Assembly (NCBI RefSeq): GCF_024345395.1
Contig: NZ_JAGQBA010000005.1
Coordinates: forward strand, 124,001-188,000
Direction of reading: 5' to 3'
Length of the DNA: 64,000 nucleotides
Source of the DNA: Cyanobium sp. Tous-M-B4
GTDB lineage: Bacteria; Cyanobacteriota; Cyanobacteriia; PCC-6307; Cyanobiaceae
Shown: piece by piece, positions 17,858 through 48,387 of the stretch
How positions within the stretch are numbered: position 1 is the stretch's first letter
Layout of the letters: each line of letters opens with the position of its first letter
Program-made: the position numbers and the translations under genes
The notes under the pieces: model-generated
Told to the model about the DNA's origin: nothing
Database searches by the model: none
What the model saw: the letters and a program-made list of their open reading frames with translations, nothing else

Positions 17858-18033
17858 GGTCTGATAACCACTGTGAGTTGTAACAGCATTACCCCGGTGG
17901 CAAGCGGTGGCAACGCCAGCGCTGCGAAACACCACTTGGATGCAGACCTGGCAATCCTGTGGGAGGACGAAGCGGCGCGTGCCGTTTACCCTTCCGCACC
18001 GCAGTTCTTTCTCTTTTGCGCTGCACTGCTGCC

Positions 18034-25273: not shown

Positions 25274-27298
25274 TCAGTTGAGATCAAGCCCCTTGAACGT
25301 CGCCGTCTTCACATCGTTGTAGAAGATCGGATCGATCTTGTCGATCTCATCGGTGTTGATCTCGAGGAAGCTGCGCTTGTTCTCACCCGGGATCAGGGCG
25401 CAGCGGGCGCCGTTATCCATGGCGACCTGGAGCGGCTCCACAAGGGAGCGGGCGGCCTTGATGTTGCCCTGAATGCTCATGTCGCCCATGACCAGCATGC
25501 CGGCCCTGGCGGGGGCACGGCGGATGGCGGAAAAAGCGGCCAGAAAGAATGCCACGCCAACCTCAGCTTCAACCTTGTTGCCCAGGAGGTCGATGGCTTC
25601 GACGTTGTAGTCGTAGCTGTCGGCCTCGTGGCTAATCGAGAAGGCGCTCTTGTTGGCCTGTAGATAGGCGAAAGCGCGCTGGATGGATTCCTTCATCTGG
25701 CCGCTGATGCCACCTGCCGGCTTGAGCTTGCCGTTGCCTGCTGCGATGGAGACCTCCAAGCGGTAGAGGCCAACCGTGCCATCCCCAGTTACGGACGCGG
25801 TGTAGACCGAACCCGGCGCCATCGGCTCCGCGGCGATTAGATCCTGACCGCCCTGCTCGGGCACGCCAACGAAATGCTCCTCGCCCGTGTCGTTGTCTGA
25901 GTAGCTGAAGGAGGTCTGGCTGTACTCGAAGGAGCCCATCTTCTTGAGCTGCTCCTTGACGCGCCTGCGGCACTCGATGGCGAGCTTGACGATGTCTTCC
26001 AGGTCTTCCTTCGACGGTTCCCCATGGGGATGGATGATCTTGACCAGCCCGGAGACGGTGCGGCGCACGGCCTTGCGGTCACGGGTGTTGAGGTGACTGC
26101 CTAAGCCGAAGTGGCTGTCGCAGAGCTCGGTGTAGTTGAGCTTGCGCAGGTCGCGCAGGGCCTCGGCCAGGTAGTCGATCACGAAGCCGTAGTGGTCCGT
26201 GAAGAACTCGTTGCGCATGTTGGGAACTTCCCAGCCCGGCAGGTAGCAGTGCAGCCGGTCGATGAAGGCGCGGTCGTCGCGAATCACATCGGGCATCGGT
26301 GCGAACAGGTGCCCCGTTTGCACCATCACGTCGATCGGCTGCTGGGTGTTGCCGAACATGGCGATGCTGGCGTCGCCGGCAAAGCTCTCGGCACCACGCT
26401 GGAACTGCCCCGACTCGCAGTAGGTCTTCATGGTGGTGATGACCTCCTTGGGCATCTTCTGGAGGTCAGCCACCTCGTCGAAGCCGACCACGTCCCAGAT
26501 CGACACCATCCCTTTGACCTTGCCGCTCATGTGGCCAAACAGGTTGGCCACGGTGGTGGGGCCGGTGAGCAGGGCCGCGTAGGGCGAGAGCTCCTGAACC
26601 GCAAAGCTCTTGCCGGTGCCGCGAGGACCCAGCTCCACCAGGTTGTAGTTGCGCTCGCAGAGCGGGATAAGCCGCAGCAGGAATAGGAGCTTGAGCCGCT
26701 GGCTGAACTGGGAGGGCTCGTAGCCCATCGAACGGATCAGCAGGTCGATCCACTCCTCGGTGCTGAACTGCGTCCGCAGCTTGCGGTATTCATCGAGGTT
26801 GAAGCTGGCCAGCTGGATCGGCGTCAGCTGGCTGATCGAGAAGGGCGCCTTGCTGTCGTTCTCCTCCCACTCCACCTCCACCTGCGCCCACACCCCGCCA
26901 GTGAGCAACCGCTCAAAGGCATGCACGTCGTCATCAGCGATGCGCAGGCTGTTGCTGCCGAAGTTGACGCACTCGGCCACATAGGTGTTGCCGACCAGGC
27001 GCACCTTCACCTTGTCGATGAAGGTGTAGCGGCCCTTCTGCTTGACCTTGCTCTGGGCCTTGGTGGCCTCGTCGGGTCTGATGTAGTTGTTGGACAGGGT
27101 GTCGCGCACCACGGAGAGGCCCAGCTCGATGGCGGCGGCATCGGAGGAGGCGCAGTATTTGCCGAGCAGATACTCGAGCACGAACACCGGCACGTTGGCG
27201 CCGACCTTCACGGCCCGCACCAGGTCCTTGCGGACGCACTTACCCGCAAAGACCTGATTGACCTTGTCGTCGAGGGCGTCGCGGGCGGGGGTGCTCAT
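25274..27298 (-). CDS. brxL: BREX Lon-like ATPase BrxL
   Basis: 674 residues. The N-terminal part is a BrxL-type binding domain. The AAA+ ATPase has Walker A GPRGTGKS (about residue 226), Walker B VGFDEVA (about residue 272) and a sensor NTQQ-type loop. The C-terminal Lon-like domain ends GDMSIQGNIKAARSLVEPLQ and ALIPGENKRSFLEI. Where active Lon has its Ser motif this protein reads VEAEVGVAFFLAAFSA, so I see no Ser-Lys dyad. BrxL forms ring complexes that act on phage DNA. It is the last gene of the BREX operon, separated from pglZ by about 125 bases. Confidence 0.9.
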   Translation of the reverse strand: MSTPARDALDDKVNQVFAGKCVRKDLVRAVKVGANVPVFVLEYLLGKYCASSDAAAIELGLSVVRDTLSNNYIRPDEATKAQSKVKQKGRYTFIDKVKVRLVGNTYVAECVNFGSNSLRIADDDVHAFERLLTGGVWAQVEVEWEENDSKAPFSISQLTPIQLASFNLDEYRKLRTQFSTEEWIDLLIRSMGYEPSQFSQRLKLLFLLRLIPLCERNYNLVELGPRGTGKSFAVQELSPYAALLTGPTTVANLFGHMSGKVKGMVSIWDVVGFDEVADLQKMPKEVITTMKTYCESGQFQRGAESFAGDASIAMFGNTQQPIDVMVQTGHLFAPMPDVIRDDRAFIDRLHCYLPGWEVPNMRNEFFTDHYGFVIDYLAEALRDLRKLNYTELCDSHFGLGSHLNTRDRKAVRRTVSGLVKIIHPHGEPSKEDLEDIVKLAIECRRRVKEQLKKMGSFEYSQTSFSYSDNDTGEEHFVGVPEQGGQDLIAAEPMAPGSVYTASVTGDGTVGLYRLEVSIAAGNGKLKPAGGISGQMKESIQRAFAYLQANKSAFSISHEADSYDYNVEAIDLLGNKVEAEVGVAFFLAAFSAIRRAPARAGMLVMGDMSIQGNIKAARSLVEPLQVAMDNGARCALIPGENKRSFLEINTDEIDKIDPIFYNDVKTATFKGLDLN

Positions 27299-27423
27299 GG
27301 GGGCTGGATTAGGTGGTGCTTGCTGAAGTGCTGTGCTTTGTGAGGCAGGGCGTTTCGTGGATCACGTCTGCCAATCGAGCTGTGGTGGAGGGAAGCCGCC
27401 CAGGTGGTAGGTAACAGGAGCCA

Positions 27424-30096
27424 TCAGCCGAGCAGGTCCACTGGCAGATCGGGGCTGCGGTGCAGCACCAGATCCGTGGCGGCGTCGCGCAGCTCCAGGT
27501 AGAGCTTCTTGCCGCTCCAGTCGCCGGGAATGAGCAGGCCGATGGTGGCGGCCTGGCCGGGGGTGAGGGTGAGGCGGTTTGTGCCTGTGTCGAGCTCAGC
27601 GTCGATGGCCTGGATGGGCGTAGCGACCAGGTCTTCTGTCTTGCAGTCGTAGGCAGCGAGCACGGTCTGGCGGTTTTTGCCCTGGTTGAGCAGGTCGATG
27701 GGTAGCTCGATCGGCACCATCAAGATGCGATTGGTGACCCTCTCAACCAGCGTTCCTGGCCAGGGCTTCTGCTTTTTGGCCTTGCCTGCGACCTCAGGTG
27801 CAGCGCCAGGGGCTGCGCAGCGGAAGCTGAGCAGGGGGATCAGCAGCTCCTGGATGCTGCTGCCGCCGTGGTGAAAGCAGAGACTGCCACCAGCCTTGAG
27901 CACCCCGGAGGAACGGGGCAGCACCACCGAGAGACCGTTTTGTCCGTAGCCAAGGGCAGCGGGCTGGATTTCCACGCAGGAGGGATTGACGGCGGAGGGG
28001 TGGCCAAGCCAGCAGCGCCGCTCCAGCTTGAACAGCTTTCCGTCCGGCGGGTCGATGCGCATGGCGGGCTCTCGGCCCAGCGGTAGATGCAGGAAGCCGT
28101 GATCCGCGGTGATCACGAAGCGCTCCAGCGGCTGCTCCAGCGGCAGGGCAGCCAGGCGGCGCACGGCGTCTTCGATGGTGTCGAGCTCGCGCTGCATGTC
28201 GGTGCGCACATTGGCGAGGTTCTCGTCGGTGTCGCGCTCACCGGCGTGGTCGATGCCGGTGCTGGTGACCACCACTGGACCAGTACCGGCCAGCTTCTCG
28301 AGCAGCACGGCCTCCTTGCTGCGAATCAGCTCCACCAGCGAGATCACTACGGCGGTGGGCACACGCTGCTGCAGGTGGGCGAGGCGCTTGGGCTTGTCAT
28401 TGCTCCAGCCCACCGGCACCCCATCGACCACGGAGCAGGGGCTGCCAGCGACATCGGCCACCGCAAAGCTGCGCTCCGCGCCGGGCAGCAGGGCTGCCAT
28501 GCCAACGGGCGTGATCGAGGGCAGGGCGGCCTGGGCGATCTCCAGCTTGAGGTCGCTGAGCTGCTCGCGGCTCCAGCCGCTGAAGCGCTCATGCAAGGTG
28601 GCGCCCATCTCGTAGCGCAGGGCATCCACCCAGAACACCACCGCCCTGCCGGCGCCGGGCTGCACCCGCTCGCTCCAGGTGCGCGTCTGCGGGAAGGCAC
28701 CAGGGATAAGCCAGCCTGCCTGCTGCAAGGCAGCGGTGAAACGTTGGGCCTGCTGCTCCAGTAGGGCCTCGTAGCGGCCCCGCAGCTGCTCTAGAGCGTC
28801 TCTGATTTCCACTTCGCTGGCGGTGAGCTCAGCCACCTGCTGCTCCAGGCGCCGCTGCAGGCCATCGACCTGCTGGGCGGCCTCTGCCTGATACGGAAGC
28901 CAGGCTTCAACGGCAGCGGCGGCCTTAGGCAGCTGAGCTTGCGCCTGCTCGAGGGCCACCCCGAGGGCGGCGGCGGTGCGGGCCAGCTCCCACTGCAGCC
29001 GGCGCCTGGCTTGCTGGGCATCGGTGGGCTGACCCACCAGCCAGAAGCTGTTGTGACGGGCGGCCACCAGCTCCTGCGCCTTGGCGTACTCGCCCTGGGT
29101 GAGGAAGACGTCGACGCTGCGCAGCAGGAACTGTTCTTCGCAGGGGAAGGTGTCGATCGAGCCGAGCACGCCGGGCCGCTCGCCGCTGATCAGCGAGCGC
29201 AGCTCAAGCTCAGCTTCGATGCGATTAGCGATGACGATGTAGGCGGGCGCGTGGCTGCGGCGCAGGCCCTGCACATCTGCGAGGGCGTTTTCTTCGGCGG
29301 CCTTACCCACCGGCAGCGACTGCCTGGCAAAGGCGCTGAGCTCATCGCCATGCCAGTCGTGCAGGAACTCATGCAGCAGCAGGGCCCGCTGGGCCCGCTG
29401 GCGCCAGTCGGCCAGGGTTGTCTCTACAGGGAAGCCCAGGCCCCAGCGGCTGTGGAGCAGTTCCTGCAGTTCGTTCTCCAGCCCTTTGGCGCTGATGGCG
29501 TCATCGAGCCCATCTGCTGCCAGCCAGAGGCGGGCCAGCTCGGCGTTCTCGGGAGAGCTGTTGCGGCCCAGCTGCTGCTGAAACAGCGCCTTGAGCTGAC
29601 TGAAGCCGCCGCTACCTGCTTGCTCCAAGGCCAGGGCGATGTCGCGGTAGGTGAGATCGGGCCGCTTGAGCAGCTGCTCCACCTTTTCAGGCTCGAGCAC
29701 CTCACGCAGGTAGCCGCGGGCACGGCTCACCAGCTTGATCTCGAAGGTGGAGCCAGCGCGGAGCAGCTCAAGCAGCACAGCGCGGCCTTCGCTCTCCTGG
29801 CGATCCGGTAGGTAGACGAGCAGCGGATCGGGCAGATCTGCTGCGACGTGCGGTTCAAGCTGGCTTCGCAGTTCATAGAGGCTGCTGCCAGCCAGCGCCC
29901 AGCCGGCCTGCTGCTCCCCGAAGCTGAGGCTGCCAAGCTCCCTGGCGCTGGGCGAGGCCGTAGCGACATCGTCGAGAAAGGGCCGCAGCTGCTGGCCCGG
30001 ATCAAAGACCAGCAAAACCCTGTGCTCGCTGAGCTGCTTGGCCAGCTCCTGGCAGAGGCGGCGGTGGAGCTTATTGGGGGCTTCCGCTGCCATCAT
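27424..30096 (-). CDS. pglZ: BREX phosphatase-superfamily protein PglZ
   Basis: 890 residues. The start overlaps the pglX stop (ATGATG), so the two are coupled. Residues about 1-420 are helical with two Glu/Gln-rich coiled-coil segments. The alkaline-phosphatase-like core has VVFWVDALRYEMGA (about residue 485) and FVITADHGFLHLPL (about residue 660), metal-binding motifs of the PglZ family. The last third is beta-rich. PglZ is essential for BREX defence and methylation, with its exact reaction unsettled. Complete and undamaged. Confidence 0.9.
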   Translation of the reverse strand: MMAAEAPNKLHRRLCQELAKQLSEHRVLLVFDPGQQLRPFLDDVATASPSARELGSLSFGEQQAGWALAGSSLYELRSQLEPHVAADLPDPLLVYLPDRQESEGRAVLLELLRAGSTFEIKLVSRARGYLREVLEPEKVEQLLKRPDLTYRDIALALEQAGSGGFSQLKALFQQQLGRNSSPENAELARLWLAADGLDDAISAKGLENELQELLHSRWGLGFPVETTLADWRQRAQRALLLHEFLHDWHGDELSAFARQSLPVGKAAEENALADVQGLRRSHAPAYIVIANRIEAELELRSLISGERPGVLGSIDTFPCEEQFLLRSVDVFLTQGEYAKAQELVAARHNSFWLVGQPTDAQQARRRLQWELARTAAALGVALEQAQAQLPKAAAAVEAWLPYQAEAAQQVDGLQRRLEQQVAELTASEVEIRDALEQLRGRYEALLEQQAQRFTAALQQAGWLIPGAFPQTRTWSERVQPGAGRAVVFWVDALRYEMGATLHERFSGWSREQLSDLKLEIAQAALPSITPVGMAALLPGAERSFAVADVAGSPCSVVDGVPVGWSNDKPKRLAHLQQRVPTAVVISLVELIRSKEAVLLEKLAGTGPVVVTSTGIDHAGERDTDENLANVRTDMQRELDTIEDAVRRLAALPLEQPLERFVITADHGFLHLPLGREPAMRIDPPDGKLFKLERRCWLGHPSAVNPSCVEIQPAALGYGQNGLSVVLPRSSGVLKAGGSLCFHHGGSSIQELLIPLLSFRCAAPGAAPEVAGKAKKQKPWPGTLVERVTNRILMVPIELPIDLLNQGKNRQTVLAAYDCKTEDLVATPIQAIDAELDTGTNRLTLTPGQAATIGLLIPGDWSGKKLYLELRDAATDLVLHRSPDLPVDLLG

Positions 30097-33000
30097 TCGC
30101 CCTCTCCAGCTTGGCTCTCAACAGCCGCAAGACCTGACTCGCTGAGCCGGTACTTGGCTCCACGGGCAGCCCCAAGCTGCTCGATCTGACCGCCTTCCTT
30201 GAGTTGCTTGATCACAGCTGTGAGCGAGGCAGCCTCCACATTCAGCAGCTCGGCAATGGCGTTTCTGCCGAGACCGTCCGCTGGAGCGGCGGTGAGAACC
30301 AGCAGGGTCTGGCGGGAGGTTTCCGCATCTACCTCGGGGGCAGATCCGCGGGGCCGGCGGGTTGTGCCAGTGGAGGATGACTTCGCTACCCGTGGGGTGC
30401 GGGTGCGAGCGGCGGCTACAGGTGGAGAAGCTGCCAGGAAGCGTTCAAGCGCGTTCTGCACCGCAGGCTTGCTGTACTCGGCGAGCAGGGCCTCTAGCTC
30501 AGCTTCCGGCAGCTGACGCTGCAACCAGTTGCCCTTACTGGTCTCCTGCCAGAGGCGCTCTACTAGCCCGTGGGCGATAGCCAAGCTGCGATCGGTGATG
30601 CACTTTCTGATCACCCGCTCGGGCCAGAGATGGAAGGCGAGATGGGCCCAGTCGTAATCGCCTTTAACCAGCTTGTCCCAGCATTCCTTACATTTATTCT
30701 GCCAGGGGGCGTAGGGCGTGACGCGCCAAAGTATGGCGTGATTGATAATCACGCCATCGTTGAGATTTGGGCTCCAGAGGGAAGCCACTAGACCAAGCTC
30801 ACTCTTAAATATGATTAAATCCTGAAGCAGGATCTGTACCTCCCGAAGGCGGCTGGCCGAATCACTCGAGATGGCTCCTTGGGATTCAAGTTCAAACTGT
30901 TCTCGCTCGGCCTCCTGAATACGTGGCTCGACGAAATCACGCAGCACTCGATATAGCGTGTCTTGCGTGAAGCGATGGTAGTAAAGCCAGACTGAATAGC
31001 TGCCGTTGCCAGCGGAGACCTGCCAGTAGATGGGGGCCTGACGTCGGCTCTTGGAGTAGCGTTTGAGGTGATCGGCGAAGAAGCCAGCAGACTTACGAAA
31101 ATAATCACGAAGCGTCTTTACGCCGAGGATTTCGCAAACTTCGTGTTCAACGGACTCGGATGTAAAGCTGCCCTCCTGGCCACCCCAGATAATTGCAATG
31201 ACCTCGCGGATGCGGCGGTCGAGGTCTAGCGGATGATTTGGGTCATCCACGAGGATGCCGTTCCACGGAATTAGGACGGGATACGCGGGGGCCACATCTT
31301 CCTGGAGGGCTGGCAAACCATGGTCATTCTGCAACTGGCCGGGTGGACAGATTGGCAATGGTGCAAATGGATTCAACAAAGCTGGTGCAAGCCGCTTGCC
31401 AATTGCGAAATTGATATCCCATTGCCCCACACATGCTCCAACTGCGTACGAAACTAAGTCTGCTACATCAACGAAATCGGAGCGAAGCTTTACTCTGAAA
31501 CTTTTCACATCATGGCTGTCTGCCGCATTTAATATATTCTCCTCGACTACTGACGCAAGGCGTAAGCCAACTTTCTGAAGCGAGGACCGAACTAAATCAA
31601 GAGTGGATCTGCATGCTTCTGCCCGAGAGGCGACGGCATGAAGCGGCGATACAAATAACGAAGATGGCTCAATAGCCTGCTCAAGCATGTCCATTTCAAG
31701 GTATACATCTGTTGCCAACTCGCTGAGCACAAGCAAGTCATTCGCGGGCCTAGGAAGCAAGCCAATTGAACCTGTTTCATAGTTTCCAAACTTTGACAGG
31801 GCCTCAATTGCGGACAAGTACTCTGACGAAGAGAGCAGCAAAGGCAGGGCACTGGTCCATTTAAATGCATCCTCGCCCGAGGGAAAGATGATGCCATTCT
31901 TATTCGAGAAGCACGCCCCTGCCCGCAATCTCCTACAGCTAAAACCTTTTTGGCTTCTCTTGGAAAACGCAGCACCTGGGGTGCCATAATATTTTGAGGA
32001 TTGCCTCGTTCTTGCGATATTCCCGCTATTGGTCTCGGCAAATGCCGCGATCTCGGCCCCAGCTAAATGTCGCTTAACTACAAGGTGCAAGTCTCCTGAG
32101 TACCAAGAGTAATCACCGCCCTTGGAAAAGATGTGCCAAGTATATCCAATCTCGCCCGCTGAGACTTCCCATTTTAATCGAACGAATCTACTGTCGTCTT
32201 CTGTTGCTAAGCCTTGGGTCGTGCTGGCGAACCCTGCGGAAAAATTGTCACCGGACTGCAGGCGGCTGATCGCTTCAGATTCCAGTTCCAGAAGCAACTG
32301 TAGCCCCGGCAGAGAGCAAATCGTTGATAACAGCGCTACCTTCCATTCGCCTGAACTTATAGCATCAGCACGCTTATGAACCTCTTGAGACCTGACGCTC
32401 TTGTGCAGAAGCTCTCCTTGCTCATTGCTGGAAATGATGTAAGCGGCTGTTTCAACAAGCGCTCCGTCAAGAACCCCTGCGCCTAGATCTGCGAGTATAG
32501 AAATGCGCTTGCCGGTCCCGCCGACTATTTCCTTCCGGAAGTCAAGCAGATCACGCCCAACAGAGAAGGCGCGCGACGTGATTGCGCCAAGCAGCCCTGT
32601 AGTTGACAGTGAAAGATTCATCAATCGTATGATCATCGCTGCATAGATATCATTCTTGCCGCCACTATGTGCCGTACTCATGTAGTCAAGCACGCTCTTG
32701 ATGGGCTCGCCGAAAGGCGGATTCATTAATGTCACGTCGTAGCGCTTACGACAGATATCAATAAAGGCAAAACCCTGCGCCGCATCCTCCGCAAAGAGCC
32801 GACGCTGATAACCTCTTCGGTATTCAGCCTGCTCCGCGTAGTGGCGCAGAGCGGTGTAGATGCGTTCCTCAATACCAACCCAGAAATCCCTGGTGAGGTT
32901 CTGAAGATCAGCATTCAGGGAAGAACCCACCCCTCCCAGTTCTGCAAATTCAGTTGCGCTGAACAGATCCCGCTGCCGAATTGCAAGCTTCTGCCAGTCT

Positions 33001-34478
33001 CTTTGCCCCTGCTCAATCGCATCGCGAACTTCCTCCTCAATCTTGAGCAGTGATCCGGCCTCTCCTGCCAGCTGCATCTTGTCAAAGATCGTCTCCAACA
33101 ACTGCTGAACAAGACCCCTTTCTGCTTCAGGGAACTGCTGATCAACAAAATCAGCCAGTAGTTCCCGCTCACCTGGCATCGGTTCAGCGCACACCACATT
33201 GGAGCGAGTGATTGCTGGGCGAGCTGCAACCTCTACCCCCTGCTCCTGCCAGGCTCGCTGTGCTCTTAGCCAGAGGGTCAGCCTGGCGATTTGGGTAGCC
33301 CGAGGATCAATGTCTACGCCGTGGATGTTGTGCAGCAGGATCAGCCTGGGCACCTCACGCAAGAAGGCTGCCTTGCGGGCAAAGCCAGCTGTATAAGTAA
33401 CAAAGGGTGCAAAGGCTTCTCCTTGCTTGGCCTGCTCATCTGAACCATGGGCGATCTCCCAGGCCTCCTCGTAGATCGCTAGATACAGGTCAAAGGCATA
33501 AAGCCCAAAGTGCATCGAGCCGCAAGCTGGATCCAGCATGCGGATCTCACGCGGATCCTTTAGCGGGCGGTAGGGAATGTGCACCGGCTGGCGCAGCAGC
33601 TCCTCCTGGCTGATGGCTTCATCAGCAACGACCTCCGCTGGCGGCTCTTCCCCAGACTGCAGCCAGATCTCATTAGGCCGCCGCACCTGGTAGCGGCAGC
33701 GCTCTTTTAGGCCGGTATCGCCCTGCCGCATCTCATACCAGATGCGCCCCAGGGTGTTATCGGTGAGGAACTCCACCACATAGCGCGGTGTAAAGAACTG
33801 GTTGCGCACCGCCAGCTCCCGGCTGTTGCGGGGCGCAGAAGACTCCTCGCGCATCTTTTTGCGCTCGGCATCGCCGTTGAAGTACTGATAGATCCAGCCC
33901 AGGGTTTCGTCTTCTCTCCAGAGCTCAGCCAGCTCTGGCCTATTGAGGATGTCCAGCAGCTCCAAGAGCGCTGTGCGCTTTGGCCACAGCAGGCTGGCTG
34001 GATCGCGGGGATCAAATAGGGCCCGCAGCTCGCGGCTTACGTCTTCAAAGATCGTCTCCAGGTACAGCCGGTAGCTGCTCTCTTGCTCCACCAGCAGCCC
34101 TTGGGCAACAGCGGTGAACTCCTGGAAACCCTCGCTCTCTAACCCACCGCTGACGCAGCGCCGCACCAGCTCGCGGGCCTCCATGAGTTTCAAGGCCACA
34201 AAGCGGTTTAACGCCGTGAAGGCCATCTCCCGCAGGGCCAGCAGCAGGGCCTCCTTCTCATCGTTGATCTGCGCAGACCTGTGCTCGATCCAGGCCAGGA
34301 GCTTCTCGCGGAGTAACCGCTGCTCGGCCTGCAGGTGGGCGCCAGGCTCCTCGCTCCAGCGGCCGGCGGCCACATTGATGTCGTAGGTCTCCAGAAGCTG
34401 CCTGCTGAACTCCTCTTCCAGCAGGCGGCGGGCGTCCTGGGTGGCCTTCTGCAGCTTGCTGCGTTGCTCCTTTTCCAT
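30093..34478 (-). CDS. pglX: BREX adenine DNA methyltransferase PglX, with C-terminal extension
   Basis: 1461 residues, longer than the roughly 1200 usual for type 1 PglX. SAM-binding motif MLDPACGSMHFGLYAF lies near residue 313 and catalytic motif LMNPPFGEP near residue 584. PglX methylates adenines in a short asymmetric site and so marks self DNA. DNA coding for about residues 590-1200 is much poorer in GC than the flanks; this includes the target-recognition part and suggests exchange by recombination. The last 130 residues add an Arg/Thr/Pro-rich linker and a winged-helix-like domain (GRNAIAELLNVEAASLTAVI). Start follows the brxC stop by 14 bases. Confidence 0.9.
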   Translation of the reverse strand: MEKEQRSKLQKATQDARRLLEEEFSRQLLETYDINVAAGRWSEEPGAHLQAEQRLLREKLLAWIEHRSAQINDEKEALLLALREMAFTALNRFVALKLMEARELVRRCVSGGLESEGFQEFTAVAQGLLVEQESSYRLYLETIFEDVSRELRALFDPRDPASLLWPKRTALLELLDILNRPELAELWREDETLGWIYQYFNGDAERKKMREESSAPRNSRELAVRNQFFTPRYVVEFLTDNTLGRIWYEMRQGDTGLKERCRYQVRRPNEIWLQSGEEPPAEVVADEAISQEELLRQPVHIPYRPLKDPREIRMLDPACGSMHFGLYAFDLYLAIYEEAWEIAHGSDEQAKQGEAFAPFVTYTAGFARKAAFLREVPRLILLHNIHGVDIDPRATQIARLTLWLRAQRAWQEQGVEVAARPAITRSNVVCAEPMPGERELLADFVDQQFPEAERGLVQQLLETIFDKMQLAGEAGSLLKIEEEVRDAIEQGQRDWQKLAIRQRDLFSATEFAELGGVGSSLNADLQNLTRDFWVGIEERIYTALRHYAEQAEYRRGYQRRLFAEDAAQGFAFIDICRKRYDVTLMNPPFGEPIKSVLDYMSTAHSGGKNDIYAAMIIRLMNLSLSTTGLLGAITSRAFSVGRDLLDFRKEIVGGTGKRISILADLGAGVLDGALVETAAYIISSNEQGELLHKSVRSQEVHKRADAISSGEWKVALLSTICSLPGLQLLLELESEAISRLQSGDNFSAGFASTTQGLATEDDSRFVRLKWEVSAGEIGYTWHIFSKGGDYSWYSGDLHLVVKRHLAGAEIAAFAETNSGNIARTRQSSKYYGTPGAAFSKRSQKGFSCRRLRAGACFSNKNGIIFPSGEDAFKWTSALPLLLSSSEYLSAIEALSKFGNYETGSIGLLPRPANDLLVLSELATDVYLEMDMLEQAIEPSSLFVSPLHAVASRAEACRSTLDLVRSSLQKVGLRLASVVEENILNAADSHDVKSFRVKLRSDFVDVADLVSYAVGACVGQWDINFAIGKRLAPALLNPFAPLPICPPGQLQNDHGLPALQEDVAPAYPVLIPWNGILVDDPNHPLDLDRRIREVIAIIWGGQEGSFTSESVEHEVCEILGVKTLRDYFRKSAGFFADHLKRYSKSRRQAPIYWQVSAGNGSYSVWLYYHRFTQDTLYRVLRDFVEPRIQEAEREQFELESQGAISSDSASRLREVQILLQDLIIFKSELGLVASLWSPNLNDGVIINHAILWRVTPYAPWQNKCKECWDKLVKGDYDWAHLAFHLWPERVIRKCITDRSLAIAHGLVERLWQETSKGNWLQRQLPEAELEALLAEYSKPAVQNALERFLAASPPVAAARTRTPRVAKSSSTGTTRRPRGSAPEVDAETSRQTLLVLTAAPADGLGRNAIAELLNVEAASLTAVIKQLKEGGQIEQLGAARGAKYRLSESGLAAVESQAGEGE

Positions 34479-34492
34479 GGTTTAGGCCCTCC

Positions 34493-37400
34493 TCATTGCA
34501 GTAAGACCTTGCGGTCGTTGCCTAGCTCTGCTTCGCAGCGCTGGCGGATGCGGTTGAGCACGTCGTCGAGGCCCGCCGCATCGAAGGGTTCGCGACACAG
34601 CTCGCGCACACTCACCGTGCTCACCTCCTGCTCGGGGAAGGCCCACTTCTGGGCGATCTGCTCCTGCTGGCGCAGCAAGCCTTCGAGCATCGCCGGCTGA
34701 TCGCGTAGCCGCACCAGATCCAGGGCCTCGGCGTCGCTGGCCTTCTGCTGCAGCGGTGCCTTCAGCTGCTGCTGCCGCTCTGGCTCCAGCGCCGTAAAGC
34801 CAGGGGTCTGCTCCAACTGCTGCACGCGCTGCTGCACCTGAGCAGCAAGGGCCTGCTGGGCTGCCTGGCGCCGCTGCGCGTAGGCCTCCTCCAACTTCCT
34901 GGTGAGCTGGTCGATCTCAGGCAGCTTCTCGTAAAAGCTTGGTGCCTGCAGCCGATCGTCCAGCGCCGCCTGTTCCGCGTGCAGTTCCGCCGGCAGATCA
35001 GCCTCCTGCAGCAGCTGGCCCCAGATCTCAGCGCTCAGGGCTTTTCGAGCACGCTGCAAATCAGCGCTGCGGCTAGCGAGCGTCTCCTGGATTCCCTTGG
35101 CCTTCTGCCAGGCCTCCTTGACGGCTTCTGCGCTGCTCTTGAACGCCAGCACCACCTCCTCATCGTTGTTGTCCTGCCAGGTGGACACCTGCTCACTGGC
35201 CTGCTCCAGCACCTCAATTCCTGGCAGCTGCAGCGGTGCCAGCGCCCGGCTGGCGCTGTTGAGTTCGGCATTGACGCCCACCGCCACTACGCGGATCTCA
35301 CGGGCTAGGGGGCCTGGCTGCACGCCAGCGACGGTTTTGCCCGCAAACTTCTGGAACAGCTGGCTTGCTTGCAGCACGTCTTCTGGCTTCAGCTTGCCGG
35401 CGTGGGCGACAAAAAGCGTGGCGCGGAAGGTGCTGTTGTTGGTGAATAGGGGCCGCACCTGGGGGTTGGCGGTGCCCACAAAGCTCTGGGCGTTGTGGGT
35501 GGCCTTGAACTTGCCTGCCACCTGCAGGGCCGCCACCAGAAACCTCACCGCATCGAGAGTCCAGCCGTAAGGAGCAGCACCAAAGTGATCGGCCAGCTCT
35601 TTGCCGCTCCAGCCGGCACTCTTCACCTGGCTGCGGTTGAGCACCGCCTGCAGCGCTGGGCGGTTGGTGTCGATCACCCACTGGCCGCCTTCCTCCTTGC
35701 AAAGCCGCAGCTTTTCGATTGAGCCGGTGAGGCCCTTGAGGTTGTCGGCGCTGAGCAGCTTGGTGAGCTCCTCGCTGCTGGGGCTCACCTCCGCTTCACC
35801 AAAGCGGGCGTAGATCTTGGCCAGCCCCTCCTTGAGCGCCTCGCGCATCGCATCAACGGCGCTGGCGGGATTGGCTGGAAGCTCACAGATGCCGCCATTG
35901 AGCAGGATCTTGCCGTGGATCAGGGTTTGCTCCAGCAGGCGGCAGGCCTCCTTCTGGAAGCCAGCCAGCTTGCGGCGCTCCTCGCTGACCAGCTGCACCT
36001 GCCCTTTGTCGGTGGCGCCCTTGCCTTTGAGATCGATCACCTTCTGGGAGCGGAACCACTCGCCCAGGGTTCGATCCAGCTCTTGGCTGGCGCACATCGC
36101 CCAGAAGAAGGTATTGGTCTCCTGCTGGCTGGTCTGGCGCAGCTGCTCCACCCGCTCTTCTTGCACCTCGCTGCTAGCAACCCGCTCCACCTTCACGGGC
36201 ACATCACCCTTCACCAGCTCGCTGCCGCGGAAGTTGAGGGCAGCCTTGAAGCTCTTGACGCCACTCCCTAGAGCTGCGCTTGGCACCGGCTCCCAGATCA
36301 GCTTGAGGGCCTCAGCCAGCAGCCCATTGCGCTCTGGCACCGAGGGTGCCTGCTGGTTGCGGGTCTGCTCCCAGTCTTCCTCTTGCGCAGTGGGGATCTT
36401 GTAGGTGCCGTCGGCCGCCTTGCGGATAAGGTTGCGTTCAGCTAGGTGCCGGCAGGCCTCCTGCACCTGGGATTCGAGCGAATCTGCATCGATGGCTGGG
36501 TGCAGCACCACGGCCACATTGCGCTCAGTGGCCGGCACCTGATCGACGAACTGCAGCAGGCAGATCGCCTTGGCCACCGGCACCGCCAGCGGATGATCGG
36601 CCTTGCTGGCGATATCGACGATCTTGCCGCGGTACTGCGAATCGATGTTGTTGCTCTGCAGATCAAACACCCGATCCAGGGTCACAAGCGAGCCCACCTG
36701 CTTGTCAGCCAGCCCGCTTTGGGGATTGGTGAGCAGCTCCTGGGCCAGCTTGATGATCGCCCGGTTGGCACCGCCGAACTGCTTGCTGGCGCCCCCGGAG
36801 AGGCGCAGACCCGACACCACCTGAATGATCAGCTCGATCTGATACGGCAGCAGGGGGTAGAGGGCCGCGAAGCCTTTGGCGCCCAGCTCGGGCAAGCGAA
36901 TCTTGGTGTCGAGCTTTGTGTGGGTGGCCAGGCGGCCCTGATGCTGCTGGAACAGCTCGGTGAGGGTCACCTCTCCCTGGGCGCTCTTGCCCAGAACCCG
37001 CCGGCTGGTCACCTCAGCGATGTCGGAGGGCTCCAGCACCGGCTTGTAGGGGAAGCGATCCTGCAGACGCGCCAGCTCGGTGCGGTTGTCGTCGAGGTAA
37101 CCCACCACATCGGAGAGCTTCTCCTGGGAGGTGACCATCACCCACACCCTGCCGCGGCCCTTAATGCCCAGCTGCTGCACGATCGCCTGTAGATCAAGCA
37201 TCTTCTGGATGTCGCGGGCCACGTACTGGCCCACCTCATCCACCACAAACATCAGCTGCTTACCGGGATGCTTGCGAGCGAGTAGCTCGATGGTGCGCTC
37301 CGCCAGGCTGGCAGGTGTGATCGGCACGTTTTGATCGCGGGCGTTTTTAAGCCAGCTGTCTTTCTCGGCGTAGGTCTGCGGTTCTATGGCCTGCATCACG

Positions 37401-38029
37401 GCACTGGCCCTAGGCATCGCCTGCAGCAGGCGCGTCTTGGCGATCGCCCAGTCTTCTCCTGGGTAGAGCTCAGCAAAGGCAGCAAGGAAGGCCTGCAGCT
37501 GGCCCTGCTCTTCCAGCTCGATTTCTAGTTCGGCCACCTCCAGGCTGCTGGAGTAGCCGAGGTGATCAAGCAGCTTGCGATAGAAGATCTTGGTGAGATC
37601 TTCGCTGGCATTGACGTTGCGATCCGCCGAGACATCAAAGATGATTGCTTCTGTGGGGATCTGCTCCTTGATCGCCCCCAGCAACGCCTTGATCGCCTGA
37701 TTATTAGCTCGCTGCGCCAGTAGGTCGCCTGCACTGACGCCGCCCAGGTCCCGGTTGCTGATCGCTAGGCCCACATATTTGGCGAAGCTCGACTTACCTG
37801 CCCCGAAGAAGCCCGCCACCCAGATCGCAATCGCTTCGCTGGGTTGATTCACCGACTGGCGATAACCCTCCAGCACCTTGAGCATGCTGCTCTCAATCGA
37901 TTCGGTGAGGATGTATTCATCGATCTCCTGGCGCACGATCGCCACATCGTCTTGATCGACCTTGATCACTTCCTCGATCTTGCGATCGATCCGGCCGGAG
38001 AAGAGTTCGCGAATGGTTTGGGTAGTCAT
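34493..38029 (-). CDS. brxC: BREX P-loop ATPase BrxC
   Basis: 1178 residues, normal length. Walker A GFFGAGKSSF near residue 75, Walker B LMFVVDEVGQYVA near residue 262, then a long helical body with a coiled coil rich in Gln and Ala at residues about 960-1100. BrxC is a large ATPase required for defence, probably scaffolding the complex with BrxB, PglX and PglZ. It starts two bases after the brxB stop. Confidence 0.9.
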   Translation of the reverse strand: MTTQTIRELFSGRIDRKIEEVIKVDQDDVAIVRQEIDEYILTESIESSMLKVLEGYRQSVNQPSEAIAIWVAGFFGAGKSSFAKYVGLAISNRDLGGVSAGDLLAQRANNQAIKALLGAIKEQIPTEAIIFDVSADRNVNASEDLTKIFYRKLLDHLGYSSSLEVAELEIELEEQGQLQAFLAAFAELYPGEDWAIAKTRLLQAMPRASAVMQAIEPQTYAEKDSWLKNARDQNVPITPASLAERTIELLARKHPGKQLMFVVDEVGQYVARDIQKMLDLQAIVQQLGIKGRGRVWVMVTSQEKLSDVVGYLDDNRTELARLQDRFPYKPVLEPSDIAEVTSRRVLGKSAQGEVTLTELFQQHQGRLATHTKLDTKIRLPELGAKGFAALYPLLPYQIELIIQVVSGLRLSGGASKQFGGANRAIIKLAQELLTNPQSGLADKQVGSLVTLDRVFDLQSNNIDSQYRGKIVDIASKADHPLAVPVAKAICLLQFVDQVPATERNVAVVLHPAIDADSLESQVQEACRHLAERNLIRKAADGTYKIPTAQEEDWEQTRNQQAPSVPERNGLLAEALKLIWEPVPSAALGSGVKSFKAALNFRGSELVKGDVPVKVERVASSEVQEERVEQLRQTSQQETNTFFWAMCASQELDRTLGEWFRSQKVIDLKGKGATDKGQVQLVSEERRKLAGFQKEACRLLEQTLIHGKILLNGGICELPANPASAVDAMREALKEGLAKIYARFGEAEVSPSSEELTKLLSADNLKGLTGSIEKLRLCKEEGGQWVIDTNRPALQAVLNRSQVKSAGWSGKELADHFGAAPYGWTLDAVRFLVAALQVAGKFKATHNAQSFVGTANPQVRPLFTNNSTFRATLFVAHAGKLKPEDVLQASQLFQKFAGKTVAGVQPGPLAREIRVVAVGVNAELNSASRALAPLQLPGIEVLEQASEQVSTWQDNNDEEVVLAFKSSAEAVKEAWQKAKGIQETLASRSADLQRARKALSAEIWGQLLQEADLPAELHAEQAALDDRLQAPSFYEKLPEIDQLTRKLEEAYAQRRQAAQQALAAQVQQRVQQLEQTPGFTALEPERQQQLKAPLQQKASDAEALDLVRLRDQPAMLEGLLRQQEQIAQKWAFPEQEVSTVSVRELCREPFDAAGLDDVLNRIRQRCEAELGNDRKVLLQ

Positions 38030-38031
38030 GG

Positions 38032-38658
38032 TCAGGCGAACAGCTTGGGGCGGTAGTTGTGGTCGGCATCTGCTTCATCCATAAAGCGCAGCCCTGCTGG
38101 ACCATCCCGCTGGCCGGGGTAGAAGAGCACCACCGGATGCAGCACCCGGTTGCGCAGGTTCTCAAGCAGGGCCGACGGGCGGTGCAGGTCAAAGAGCGAC
38201 CCCACCCGCTCCAGAAACACGAGGTGGCTGCTGGTCGGCTTGGAGGTATCCACCGCCTGCGCCACCAGCTCATCCAAGGGCACCGCTCCAGCTGCCTTGC
38301 CGCTGAGCACATCCCGCAGGGTGTCGCGCACCAGCTCTGGCCCCAGCGAGGCTTCTGCCTCAGCGATCTCCTCCAGCGACAGGCCGGCGGCTTTGATCGC
38401 CTGCTCCAGCAGGGCAGCCAGTGAAAGCCGCTGCACTGTCTTGCCCGCGTTCTCCAGCCGGATGGTGAGATCGCGCAGCTCAGCTCTGAGCTCCCATTCG
38501 TCCTCCGGTGGATACAGAAAAATCCCGAAGGGCATGTCGGTGTAGGTGCTCAGCCCTGCCCCGGAGTCAGCGGCAGTAAGTACGGGCTCAAGTTGCTGCT
38601 GCAGGCAGCGCTGCCACTCCTTCATGCCTGCGCCGCGAGTTCCCAGCGTCTGGCTCAT
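38032..38658 (-). CDS. brxB: BREX protein BrxB (DUF1788)
   Basis: 208 residues from ATG 38658, which overlaps the brxA stop (ATGA). Family-like segments include DMPFGIFLYPPEDEWELRAE, SSHLVFLERVGSLFDLHRPS and the end HPVVLFYPGQRDGPAGLRFM. BrxB is needed for assembly of the BREX complex; its activity is unknown. It is flanked by brxA and brxC in the order standard for types 1 and 6. Confidence 0.85.
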   Translation of the reverse strand: MSQTLGTRGAGMKEWQRCLQQQLEPVLTAADSGAGLSTYTDMPFGIFLYPPEDEWELRAELRDLTIRLENAGKTVQRLSLAALLEQAIKAAGLSLEEIAEAEASLGPELVRDTLRDVLSGKAAGAVPLDELVAQAVDTSKPTSSHLVFLERVGSLFDLHRPSALLENLRNRVLHPVVLFYPGQRDGPAGLRFMDEADADHNYRPKLFA

Positions 38659-39644
38659 GACCACACCTCCTGCACCAGGGCCTCGGCGCTGCTGGCCGGC
38701 AGCTTGAGATCCACCACTGATCCAGCGCGGTAGTAGCTGATCACCTTCGCCTGGTGCAGCAGCAGCAAGCGGTGCTCCAGCTCCGCCTCCGGCAGCCGGA
38801 ACCACAGCCAGCGCGGATCGGCCAGGGCAGCTGCGGTGGTGCGGTTGCTGGCCAGGGCCTGCAGCAGCACATAGAGCAGGGGCTCATCAGCCAGGTAGTA
38901 GGCCGTGAAGCGGCGCTTAACGCGGCCCTGCAGCAGCCCAAGATCCACTCCCGCCTTGAGCAGGCCGCCGGCGACGCGCTTGCGGGTGGCCTCGCTCCAC
39001 TCCGCGACCTCGGGATGACCTTGGGCGCCCGTGCTCTCCAGCCAGGTGAGCACCTGGGCTGTTTGCAGTAGGTCAGCACCGTCGCGATGCACCTGGGCGC
39101 TCCAGCGCAGTCCGTCGCCGAGGAGCTGCTCGCTGTTGGCCAGGTGCCAGAGAAGCAGCGATTTCCAGTGGCGTTGGCCGGTTTCCGTCCGCGCCGCCAG
39201 CACCAGGGCCCGATCACGCCCCGCTGGCTCGAAGCGGGAACTGAGGGCACTGCAGACCTTCTTAAGCCAGGCCTGGGTGGGGGCGCCGATGCTGTTGCTC
39301 TGGCGCAGCTGTTCGAGGTTGGCGCGCTTGCTGGCCACCAGCTCCCAGCCCTGCAGCGCCTGCAGGGTGTCGCTAACTAAGGGACCGCGAATAAGGCCAT
39401 CGCTCCGGTAAGGGGGGATAGCGGCTGTTTTGGCTTTTGACTTGGCCGTGCGCTTGGGCGTGGTCTTGGCTGCTGGTGCCGCTGGCTTGGGCTGGGGTTC
39501 GGCCTTCGCCTTGACAGATGTTTTCTCGCTTGCTTTGCGTGCCGGCTTGGGGGCCGCCGGCTTTGCCGGAGCAGCCGCCGTCTTCTCGGTGGTGGGAGCA
39601 GCCGCTACCGCCGGCTTGCGCCTGGTCTTGGTTGCCGCTGCCAT
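38655..39644 (-). CDS. brxA: BREX protein BrxA (DUF1819) with a histone H1-like N-terminal tail
   Basis: 329 residues from ATG 39644, overlapping the brxE stop (TGATG). Residues about 90-329 look like BrxA: IPPYRSDGLIRGPLVSDTLQ, then GWELVASKRANLEQLRQSNS, LGLLQGRVKRRFTAYYLADE, and a basic-helical end. The preceding 80 to 90 residues are made almost only of Lys, Ala, Pro, Thr and Arg (for example PAKPAAPKPARKASEKTSVK). This resembles eukaryotic H1 or bacterial AlgP-like tails and is absent from the usual roughly 200-residue BrxA. BrxA is a DNA-binding BREX factor, so the tail may strengthen DNA contact. Confidence 0.85.
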   Translation of the reverse strand: MAAATKTRRKPAVAAAPTTEKTAAAPAKPAAPKPARKASEKTSVKAKAEPQPKPAAPAAKTTPKRTAKSKAKTAAIPPYRSDGLIRGPLVSDTLQALQGWELVASKRANLEQLRQSNSIGAPTQAWLKKVCSALSSRFEPAGRDRALVLAARTETGQRHWKSLLLWHLANSEQLLGDGLRWSAQVHRDGADLLQTAQVLTWLESTGAQGHPEVAEWSEATRKRVAGGLLKAGVDLGLLQGRVKRRFTAYYLADEPLLYVLLQALASNRTTAAALADPRWLWFRLPEAELEHRLLLLHQAKVISYYRAGSVVDLKLPASSAEALVQEVWS

Positions 39645-40204
39645 CAGCCTGGCACCTGCAGGTAGGGCACCACCAGCTGGCCGGGCTGGCCGCAGACGAA
39701 CGCTGCTGCCAGCCGCTCTATGTGCCCCTGGTTGATCTCGAAGGGAGCGTCCAACCGCAAGGCCTTGGCGGTCTGTGGGGTCTGGTTCCGTGCCCAGTCG
39801 AGCGCCTCCGAATCCAGCTCGGCCAGCTCGACCAGCGCCTGGGGCCATTGCTCCGTACTCAGGGCCCAGGCCGCCTGGAAGCAGTCCGCCCACTCCTGGG
39901 GTGCATCCAGCCAGCGGTTGCGCTCGTTCTCGTACGCGTCTTCCAGCTGGGGCGTCAGCCGAAATAAATGACAGGTGATCGCTCCTCCCGGGCTGGGCTG
40001 AATCCCCAAGGCCTCGTCGCAGGCCAGCTGGGCCACCCGGAAGCCAGCCCTGGTCTGCGCGAACGGCGAGGAACGCGGAAAGCCCTGCTGGAACAGGAAC
40101 TCCCCAGTGCTCGTCAATACGCCACTGTTCCACCAGCCCAGCCGCTGGGTCTCGCCCAGGGCCGCCACCACCAGGCGAAGCTTGAAGAGCTGGCGGAAGT
40201 CCAT
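39644..40204 (-). CDS. brxE: BREX protein BrxE
   Basis: 186 residues from ATG 40204. Recognised by FKLRLVVAALGETQRLGWWN followed by TSTGEFLFQQGFPRSSPFAQ and the end of the first domain with ITCHLFRL, a pattern I associate with the BrxE family of about 190 residues. BrxE is known as the first gene of type 6 BREX; its activity is not established. It heads this operon, 168 bases downstream of the LysR-like gene. The name is from memory of the family and needs a search. Confidence 0.65.
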   Translation of the reverse strand: MDFRQLFKLRLVVAALGETQRLGWWNSGVLTSTGEFLFQQGFPRSSPFAQTRAGFRVAQLACDEALGIQPSPGGAITCHLFRLTPQLEDAYENERNRWLDAPQEWADCFQAAWALSTEQWPQALVELAELDSEALDWARNQTPQTAKALRLDAPFEINQGHIERLAAAFVCGQPGQLVVPYLQVPG

Positions 40205-40324
40205 CCGGGTGGGGCAGGGTGCGGCTATCTCGCCCCAGGATGATGCCTTAATGGCGCAGCTGGCCAGTGATTGGCAAAACCCTGCAGCACAAGGGGTTTG
40301 CTCGCTGGCCGAGGCAGTTCCACA

Positions 40325-40353
40325 ATTATGCGCTGGGTGCATATTTTTGAAGC
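40325..40353 (-). promoter_or_regulatory. Possible BREX promoter
   Basis: On the minus strand a CATAAT (-10-like) follows TTCAAA (-35-like) with about 15 bases between, in an AT-richer patch of the gap 40205-40372 upstream of brxE. The spacing is shorter than optimal, so this is only a candidate. Confidence 0.3.
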
Positions 40354-41278: not shown

Positions 41279-41520
41279 CTCGGGTGGCCTGTAGGACTTG
41301 CGCCGCCGCCGCGCAGGCGGCACAACGGCAGCAGAACGCTGGATTGACACGGCAGCGCGGCAGCAGAACGGGGCAATCAGCCTTGCCCTTTTCCAGCTCC
41401 CGTCCACCCTCCCTCCCGCGAAGAACCCAGCCGGCTGAAACCCCCTGCCAGCACTGAGCCGGCCGCTCCAGTTGGTTGGCGGCTATTGCCGCGGGCCGTA
41501 AGGGCCAGCAACCTGCAGCA

Positions 41521-46618: not shown

Positions 46619-47518
<900 letters not shown>

Positions 47519-47538
47519 GTCTATCCAGGCTAATACTT

Positions 47539-47579
47539 AGCCCTAATTTCTCAAAAGCTATTAGGGCTTTTCTCTTTTT
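47539..47579 (+). terminator. Intrinsic terminator between ptxB and ptxC
   Basis: A perfect nine-base-pair stem AGCCCTAAT/ATTAGGGCT with a 12-base loop, followed by a T-rich tail. Being inside the operon, it probably ends most transcripts after the binding-protein gene and lets only some run into ptxC and ptxD. Confidence 0.75.
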
Positions 47580-47587
47580 CGAAACTC

Positions 47588-48385: not shown

Positions 48386-48387
48386 AA

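What the first reader, a model, noticed from the sequence alone, without database searches (positions are those of the whole stretch)
25274..40204. BREX operon with type 6 head (brxE) and type 1 tail (brxL)
Published types give brxE with brxD and brxHI in type 6, and brxL in type 1 or 4. Here the order is brxE-brxA-brxB-brxC-pglX-pglZ-brxL with overlapping or near-overlapping starts throughout. That makes it a hybrid or an unlisted subtype. All seven genes are intact.
Basis: partly seen in the sequence, partly recalled or inferred. Interest (0 to 1): 0.75.

Follow-up and report, generated by a model that had tools for sequence, protein, structure and literature searches.

The report
BREX operon headed by brxE
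This is an intact seven-gene anti-phage (BREX) operon that starts with a gene so far reported for type 6 and ends with the type 1 effector; the same set recurs in cyanobacteria, haloarchaea and a few other bacteria, so it looks like an overlooked lineage and not a local mix of two types.

Summary
On the minus strand (25274-40204) lie seven intact genes, brxE-brxA-brxB-brxC-pglX-pglZ-brxL. The first protein passes NCBIfam BrxE_fam (109 bits, cut-off 40) but fails the BREX-6 BrxE equivalog (38 of 80). The genome has no brxD match and only generic helicases for brxHI.

A local hybrid is unlikely. Six complete sets (window included) were found in Cyanobiaceae and five on plasmids (four haloarchaea, one Hymenobacter), besides broken or altered ones. 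In BrxC, PglX, PglZ and BrxB trees, sampled type 1 and type 6 each form one side of a branch and the brxE+brxL systems nest in neither. In BrxC, type 6 branches among them (AU p = 8e-5 against one clade). Simplest reading: an old brxE+brxL stock in which type 6 replaced brxL by brxD-brxHI; root and direction are unresolved.

Also new: a 17-base inverted repeat starts 123 bases upstream of brxE and also precedes a type I RM operon; brxE-like heads stand before two non-BREX restriction-type gene sets. BrxE may be an exchangeable operon head.

Verdict: new variant of a known kind. All function is inferred.

The parts
39644..40204 (-). brxE, 186 aa, BrxE-family protein of the non-type-6 branch
   Evidence: NCBIfam BrxE_fam 109.2 bits over cut-off 40; BREX_6_BrxE 38.2 under cut-off 80; PADLOC BrxE 8.6e-5; BrxE tree
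38655..39644 (-). brxA, 329 aa, with an Ala/Lys/Pro-rich N-terminal stretch
   Evidence: PADLOC BrxA 2.6e-42; Pfam BrxA 41.4 over 23; coordinates
38032..38658 (-). brxB, 208 aa
   Evidence: PADLOC BrxB 7.1e-37; Pfam BrxB 61.8 over 26.8
34493..38029 (-). brxC, 1178 aa, P-loop ATPase
   Evidence: NCBIfam BREX_BrxC 771.9 over 400; Walker A GFFGAGKS at residue 73
30093..34478 (-). pglX, 1461 aa, adenine-specific DNA methyltransferase
   Evidence: BREX_1_MTaseX 614.9 over 500; BREX_6_MTaseX 344.3 under 900; BrxX/PglX structures 8c45, 9ewz and 8zek at E 2e-33 to 6e-30
27424..30096 (-). pglZ, 890 aa, PglZ-domain protein
   Evidence: Pfam PglZ 57.1 over 25; no NCBIfam type-specific PglZ model reaches its cut-off; PDB 9nv3 and 9zn5
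25274..27298 (-). brxL, 674 aa, AAA+ protein with Lon-like C-terminal domain
   Evidence: TIGR02653 931.4 over 628; PDB 8emc/8emh BrxL E 1e-180 over residues 8-672
40327..40343 (-). inverted repeat TATGC-ACCCAGC-GCATA (5-base arms here), starting 123 bases upstream of the brxE start; operator-like
   Evidence: single copy in the genome with up to 2 mismatches allowed; upstream of brxE in several relatives, with longer arms in some
40205..40348 (-). leader shared upstream of brxE in several Cyanobiaceae brxE loci
   Evidence: blastn matches of 81-93% that run from brxE to 40343-40348 and stop there in G459, HJ21 and BSA11S; in others they end earlier, in bin-1412 they extend further

Best explanation
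It is an intact BREX system of a distinct, so far undefined lineage group, 'brxE-headed, brxL-tailed'. Inferred working from relatives: PglX, helped by other Brx proteins, marks the host's own DNA by adenine N6 methylation; a BrxB-BrxC-PglZ core, with BrxA, meets unmarked incoming DNA; BrxL, an MCM-like ring, loads on that DNA and with the PglZ nuclease stops phage replication. BrxE is most likely an accessory protein at the head of the operon that sets its level or switches its state, as BrxR does in some type 1 systems. Shown here: gene content, order, intactness, family membership, recurrence, tree positions, the upstream repeat. Inferred from work on type 1 systems of other bacteria: every biochemical step. 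Inferred with little support: the role of BrxE, and that type 6 arose from this stock by replacing brxL with brxD-brxHI.
For: Gene models and matches. Complete seven-gene sets: six in Cyanobiaceae (window, G270, Synechococcus CCY 0621, Synechococcus HJ21, G657, 'Microcystis elabens' FACHB-917) and five on plasmids (Halomarina, Halobaculum, Natronosalvus, Halomontanus, Hymenobacter monticola); altered copies in Haloarcula, Thioflavicoccus and Hymenobacter BRD67. Presence table of 39 loci: of 16 labelled brxE+brxL, 13 show brxE (3 end before it) and none shows brxD or a convincing brxHI; none of 8 type 6 loci shows brxL in the stretch fetched; of 12 type 1 loci none shows brxE, but only 8 of the 12 stretches reach brxA. 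Trees: type 1 one side (98-100) and type 6 one side (99-100) in BrxC, PglZ, PglX, BrxB, the brxE+brxL rows in neither; AU test rejects these rows as one clade in BrxC, p 8.3e-5, type 6 branching among them. The Cyanobiaceae BrxL rows are one clade (100) that nests in neither of the two groups into which type 1 BrxL falls. In 6 of 6 comparisons with the window, fourfold-site identity of brxL and brxC differs by at most 0.08, while BrxL protein identity is 0.92-0.97 and BrxC 0.63-0.81: slow BrxL evolution, not recent import. Mechanism papers, abstracts seen: PMC13326643, PMC11974810, PMC10164562, PMC9122589.
Against: PglX passes the BREX-1 model, so annotation may simply call it type 1 plus one gene. 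Haloarchaeal rows fall on the type 1 side in PglZ (92), BrxB (80), in BrxC when the two long Tq rows are kept (90), and in BrxL, where they are sister to the type 1 rows from outside Cyanobiaceae (95). The Hymenobacter and Thioflavicoccus BrxL join the Cyanobiaceae type 1 BrxL, weakly (77). With a type 2 outgroup the order of haloarchaeal rows, type 1 and the rest is open. So the direction of the brxL/brxD-brxHI exchange is not settled. BrxE and BrxA trees put all brxE+brxL rows on one side (99, 82), unlike BrxC. Trees are 'quick' ones, most with long-branch warnings, with 7-8 type 6 rows and at most 7 rows of this group from outside cyanobacteria. No BrxE function is shown. Writing out the BrxL tree fully made me lower this confidence by 0.02.
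Confidence: 0.7

Rival explanations
1. A true hybrid: a type 6 operon (brxE...) recombined with a type 1 operon and took its brxL, recently or in this lineage.
For: Both parent types exist in Cyanobiaceae (type 6 as far as brxHI: G573, G589, G679; type 1: G421, G446, G457, G402). A pglZ and broken brxL of the brxE+brxL kind lie 9-13 kb from a type 6 operon in Cyanobium FGCU6, so the types do meet.
Against: BrxE is not the BREX-6 equivalog; BrxC, PglZ, PglX and BrxB are outside type 6, and the Cyanobiaceae BrxL nests in neither type 1 group; the same set occurs in archaea and Bacteroidota, and altered in a gammaproteobacterium.
Confidence: 0.07
2. Ordinary type 1 BREX that picked up an accessory brxE gene, perhaps more than once.
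For: All six type 1 genes in type 1 order; PglX over the BREX-1 cut-off; NCBI labels relatives' PglX as BREX-1; PMC12839542 folds types 5 and 6 into type 1; haloarchaeal BrxL and, less firmly, PglZ and BrxB lie next to type 1.
Against: None of the 4 unrooted core trees puts these rows inside type 1; PglZ is under both type 1 PglZ cut-offs; brxE is the first gene in every complete set seen, as in type 6.
Confidence: 0.22
3. A decayed or inactive locus kept by chance.
For: brxE relics, and split or broken brxL, occur in relatives (G551, G619, G589; G631, G697).
Against: Seven intact genes in the window with motifs present and conserved proteins despite diverged fourfold sites in relatives.
Confidence: 0.05

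Closest known systems
Type 1 BREX (brxA-brxB-brxC-pglX-pglZ-brxL; here the E. coli plasmid copy in NZ_CP010234 and others)
   Same: Same six genes in the same order; PglX over NCBIfam BREX_1 cut-off; BrxL with Lon-like C-terminal domain.
   Different: Extra first gene brxE; PglZ fails both BREX-1 PglZ models; BrxC, PglX, PglZ, BrxB fall outside the sampled type 1 branch.
Type 6 BREX (brxE-brxA-brxB-brxC-pglX-pglZ-brxD-brxHI; here G376, Pseudanabaena, Azospirillum, Aulosira)
   Same: brxE first, then the same order of core genes; in the BrxC tree type 6 branches among the brxE+brxL rows.
   Different: No brxD or brxHI but brxL; BrxE, PglX and PglZ all fail the BREX-6 models that the type 6 reference G376 passes.
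brxE-headed, brxL-tailed BREX on haloarchaeal, Hymenobacter and Thioflavicoccus plasmids
   Same: Same gene set and order, annotated by NCBI as 'BrxE family protein' near a methyltransferase, a PglZ-domain protein and BrxL.
   Different: 20-29% BrxE identity to the window and 26-28% in the aligned part of BrxC; often extra genes between core genes; Haloarcula has split brxC and pglX, Thioflavicoccus a 663-aa methyltransferase in place of a long pglX.

Membership tests
BREX (any type) | PglZ-domain protein plus BrxC ATPase in one operon | tested here: met
BREX type 1 | brxA, brxB, brxC, pglX, pglZ, brxL present in order | tested here: met
BREX type 1 | no brxE in the operon | tested here: not met
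   BrxE_fam 109.2 over 40
BREX type 1 | PglX over the NCBIfam BREX-1 cut-off | tested here: met
   614.9 over 500; the type 6 reference PglX passes it too, 617.4, so it does not discriminate
BREX type 1 | PglZ over a NCBIfam BREX-1 PglZ cut-off | tested here: not met
   102.8 of 270 and 56.1 of 400
BREX type 1 | core proteins inside the type 1 branch | tested here: not met
   BrxC, PglZ, PglX, BrxB trees
BREX type 6 | BREX-6 BrxE equivalog | tested here: not met
   38.2 of 80; type 6 reference 227.5
BREX type 6 | brxD and brxHI after pglZ | tested here: not met
   BrxD model 0 matches in the genome; BrxHI model best 133.6 bits, and it also rings in all 14 control genomes, against 923.8 for a real BrxHI
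BREX type 6 | BREX-6 PglX and PglZ models | tested here: not met
   344 of 900 and 231 of 400
BREX type 6 | core proteins inside the type 6 branch | tested here: not met
   type 6 is one side without the window in BrxC, PglZ, PglX, BrxB
BREX type 4 | PAPS reductase (brxP) in place of pglX | tested here: not met
   all seven genes of the operon are assigned and one is pglX; no PAPS reductase search of the genome was made
Active BREX | phage restriction and m6A at a fixed motif | not testable with these tools
   needs bench work or single-molecule reads

The most novel reading that the evidence does not exclude
BrxE with its leader is an exchangeable regulatory head of defence operons. The inverted repeat upstream is its operator, or that of a partner, and the same head is spliced in front of BREX, type I RM and SNF2-methyltransferase-ResIII systems. 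Type 6 BREX is one product of a brxE-headed stock that exchanged its tail.
Probability: 0.28. Interest if true: 0.72.

Novelty: new variant of a known kind. Interest (0 to 1): 0.5.

Why it matters
The current scheme ties brxE to type 6 and brxL to types 1 and 4. Here both sit together, as complete sets in haloarchaea, Cyanobiaceae and a Hymenobacter and in altered form in a gammaproteobacterium, in systems that branch from neither sampled type. This offers a natural link between types 1 and 6, suggests that the DNA-acting tail (brxL or brxD-brxHI) is the exchangeable part, and makes the unknown role of BrxE testable in an operon several of whose parts have solved relatives. The shared leader and brxE head in front of restriction-type genes hints at a way in which cells swap defence systems behind one control region.

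Tried and rejected
AlphaFold2 of BrxE with the eight close sequences allowed: mean pLDDT 62.7, mostly helical; too weak, so no fold search was run. A profile of 12 diverse BrxE proteins found no PDB relative at E up to 1. Window BrxE found no relative in viral contigs and no match in plasmids; the plasmid relatives came through BrxL, BrxC and other BrxE queries. The scan of genome contigs with a BrxE alignment gave nine loci, all titled as cyanobacteria; its confirmation step uses the window protein and so misses distant BrxE. I could not survey other phyla with the BrxE model, so non-cyanobacterial copies are known only from plasmids.

Recent import of brxL was considered because BrxL is 92-97% identical in relatives whose BrxC is 63-81% identical. 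Fourfold sites are about as diverged in brxL as in brxC, so slow protein evolution explains most of it. Exceptions: G657-G479 brxL (0.73 against 0.55 in brxC) suggests local exchange; in G443 the GC drops from about 0.62 to 0.41 at brxL, but that contig holds scattered Ns and may be chimeric, so nothing is built on it.

The upstream ORF 40373-41407 (LysR-like by eye; no hit in PADLOC, NCBIfam or Pfam) as part of the system: a match was found only in bin-1412 (49 residues at a contig end) among the 29 loci compared (several stretches hold little upstream DNA), so it was left out. A terminator reading of the upstream repeat was put aside by eye only (no T-run seen, one copy flipped); no terminator scan was run. 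Two divergent Cyanobiaceae systems (Tq rows G542, G372; type not determined) were dropped from the repeat BrxC tree and from the BrxA, BrxB, BrxE and rooted trees because of very long branches; EL_G443 and EL_G631 were also dropped from the rooted PglZ tree. Rows too short for a tree were left out (for example Thioflavicoccus and Haloarcula in PglX). The Natronosalvus BrxE row is cut by the locus start (162 aa).

Literature: 9 searches of the held open-access library; in the listings and in the passages I read I saw no definition of brxE with brxL. [quoted passage not shown] brxE was among the genes searched for, and the passages do not report it), PMC12926258 (names BrxE among regulatory and structural proteins, no test), PMC7988955, PMC12458937, PMC10609329, PMC10696648; PMC9009780 has no mention of BrxE. 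Goldfarb et al. 2015 is not held, so its type definitions come from PMC12839542 and recall. Supplements could not be read.
Full report
What is there. The window is part of contig C5 of a 2.74-Mb genome. The nearest brxE carriers found are Cyanobiaceae-type genomes titled Synechococcus, Cyanobium, or Microcystis elabens. On the minus strand seven intact genes follow one another: brxE, brxA, brxB, brxC, pglX, pglZ, brxL.

Family calls. The first protein reaches NCBIfam BrxE_fam (109.2 bits, cut-off 40) but not the BREX-6 BrxE equivalog (38.2, cut-off 80); PADLOC BrxE is weak, 8.6e-5. PglX passes the BREX-1 model (614.9, cut-off 500) and fails BREX-6 (344, cut-off 900). A true type 6 PglX also passes BREX-1 (617.4), so this does not discriminate. 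PglZ passes no type-specific NCBIfam model, its best being BREX-6 at 231 of 400. BrxL is full length with a Lon-like C-terminal domain and matches solved BrxL over residues 8-672. The genome has no BrxD match, one PglZ match and only generic helicases with the BrxHI model (best 133.6 bits; that model rings in all 14 control genomes).

Recurrence. BrxE_fam rings in 4 of 386 cyanobacterial genomes and 17 of 400 Cyanobiaceae genomes, window included in both. I sorted those 17 by neighbourhood. Six, window included, have the complete brxE...brxL set. Four have the same kind of brxE at or near contig ends (G440, G486, G559, G691). Six have type 6-like core genes: three are seen as far as brxHI (G573, G589, G679), three are partial and assigned by similarity of the core alone (G495, G579, G682; G682 looks broken). 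One (G459) has brxE before a type I RM gene. G579 also holds a third, divergent brxE-A-B-C stretch cut by a contig end. Among plasmids, the BrxL hit list (326 records, 40 listed) led to Halomarina, and BrxE and BrxC searches to the rest. Complete brxE-A-B-C-X-Z-L: Halomarina, Halobaculum, Natronosalvus, Halomontanus, Hymenobacter monticola. Altered: Haloarcula (split brxC and pglX), Thioflavicoccus (663-aa methyltransferase), Hymenobacter BRD67 (decayed). Type 6 references on plasmids are Pseudanabaena, Azospirillum and Aulosira. In the presence table of 39 loci the three patterns do not mix, within these limits: 3 of 16 brxE+brxL loci end before brxE and were labelled by similarity; 4 of 12 type 1 stretches do not reach brxA; several type 6 stretches end within or before brxHI. 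The one weak BrxHI hit in Halomontanus (2e-4) is a helicase annotated upstream of the operon.

BrxL in the family. 46 of 400 Cyanobiaceae genomes match window BrxL. Near full-length matches fall into two bands, 85-100% and 36-44% identity. In the upper band, pglZ of the window kind lies beside brxL where the contig allows. Of five lower-band loci that I named type 1, three (G421, G446, G457) were seen through brxA and show no brxE; in G402 and G531 the stretch ends before brxA.

Trees (quick IQ-TREE with mixture model). BrxC, PglZ, PglX and BrxB: type 1 one side (98-100), type 6 one side (99-100), brxE+brxL rows in neither. They form three deep branches in BrxC and PglZ: haloarchaea; Hymenobacter with Thioflavicoccus; Cyanobiaceae. 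In BrxC without the two longest rows, brxE-bearing systems (type 6 and brxE+brxL) are split from type 1 at 100, type 6 sits among them, and one clade for the brxE+brxL rows is rejected (p 8.3e-5). Against this: with the two long rows kept, the haloarchaeal BrxC goes to the type 1 side (90); so does it in PglZ (92) and BrxB (80); in BrxL the type 1 rows fall into two groups, the haloarchaeal rows are sister to one (95), the Hymenobacter-Thioflavicoccus pair joins the other weakly (77), and the Cyanobiaceae rows stand apart as a clade (100). In BrxA (82) and BrxE (99) all brxE+brxL rows sit together. With type 2 as outgroup the deepest order is open in PglZ and PglX. So: a stock distinct from sampled type 1 and type 6 is well supported; the direction of the tail exchange is not.

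Slow BrxL. BrxL is far more conserved than BrxC within Cyanobiaceae, but fourfold-site identity is about the same in brxL and brxC (window-G657: 0.53 and 0.52; window-CCY0621: 0.60 and 0.59; window-HJ21: 0.73 and 0.65; window-G479: 0.55 and 0.63), so this is mostly selection on the protein.

How it likely works. By analogy with type 1 systems (abstracts seen): BrxB, BrxC and PglZ form a core complex whose assemblies shift between idling and restriction (PMC13326643); PglZ is a metal-dependent nuclease bound to BrxB (PMC11974810); BrxL is an ATP-dependent ring on DNA, similar to MCM (PMC10164562); PglX marks the host DNA. BrxE has no assigned function (PMC12839542). In an Acinetobacter type 1 system the regulator BrxR forms a dimer that binds a site upstream of its own transcription start (PMC9122589, abstract). 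BrxE holds the first place here, and a TATGC-ACCCAGC-GCATA repeat starts 123 bases upstream of it.

The head module. The repeat is unique in the genome with two mismatches allowed. In 400 Cyanobiaceae genomes the exact 15-mer occurs 9 times in 8 genomes, the reversed control 0 times. Five of the 9 sit upstream of brxE. One sits 248 bases before an operon with hsdM, nucleotidyltransferase, HEPN, RhuM, hsdS and hsdR genes (G679). Three are not followed directly by a defence gene that I recognised (read by eye; two of the nearby proteins were tested in Pfam, no hit); two of the three lie in similar sequence. Because the brxE loci are related, five of nine partly reflects common descent. The arms are 5 bases in the window, 8 in G459, 17 in HJ21; in Cyanobium FGCU6 a near-copy (9-base arms) stands in the opposite orientation; in CCY0621, G657, M. 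elabens and UW140 this form was not found. In G459 a 274-aa ORF (BrxE residues 1-171 at 98% plus a new tail) is followed after 3 bases by hsdM. In FGCU6 contig 41 a 131-aa BrxE-headed ORF with a TTG start overlaps by 4 bases the start of an SNF2 helicase gene, followed by a DNA methylase and a ResIII gene. These may be scars of operon replacement within brxE, or a reused head.

Known or new. I saw no definition of brxE with brxL in what the held library showed me (9 searches, listed in Tried and rejected; supplements not readable; the survey PMC12839542 says only that helicases 'frequently' replace BrxL in types 5 and 6). NCBI's automatic names already put 'BrxE family protein' beside BREX-1 PglX and BrxL. 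It is a new variant of a known kind.

Noticed in passing
window 45836-49368 (+): phnC, phnD-like, phnE and a D-2-hydroxyacid dehydrogenase in a row, at about 41-43% GC in a 62% GC window; looks like a ptxABCD phosphite cluster (name recalled), probably acquired.
   Followed up: partly
L052 (G459) 14774-18010 (-): BrxE residues 1-171 at 98% identity continue in frame into a new tail (274 aa), followed 3 bases later by hsdM of a type I RM system.
   Followed up: partly
L055 (Cyanobium FGCU6, contig 41) 10069-18009 (-): 131-aa BrxE-headed ORF overlapping by 4 bases an SNF2 helicase gene, then N6/N4 methylase and ResIII genes; inverted repeat upstream in flipped orientation.
   Followed up: partly
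L112 7421-11347 and L040 (Cyanobium FGCU6, contig 58): A pglZ and broken brxL of the brxE+brxL kind lie 9-13 kb from the start of a type 6 operon.
   Followed up: no
L151 (G679:C153) 1986-12821: The same inverted repeat 248 bases before a type I RM operon with nucleotidyltransferase, HEPN and RhuM genes inside.
   Followed up: partly
L048, L046, L008, L050, L099, L101, L111: Auxiliary genes between pglX and pglZ or pglZ and brxL in relatives: Schlafen/AlbA_2-HATPase proteins, an AAA_21 ATPase, a Fic protein, a Gp49-HTH pair; the window copy has none.
   Followed up: partly
L100 (G443:C270) 5500-5709: GC falls from about 0.62 to 0.41 between a Fic-like ORF and brxL; brxL there keeps 88% protein identity with GC3 of 0.30. 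Low-GC donor or chimeric contig with Ns.
   Followed up: partly
L041 (G579:C41) 1992-4960: A third brxE-brxA-brxB-brxC variant, sister to the Cyanobiaceae group in BrxE, BrxA and BrxB trees; its brxC match changes frame once and ends at residue 349.
   Followed up: no
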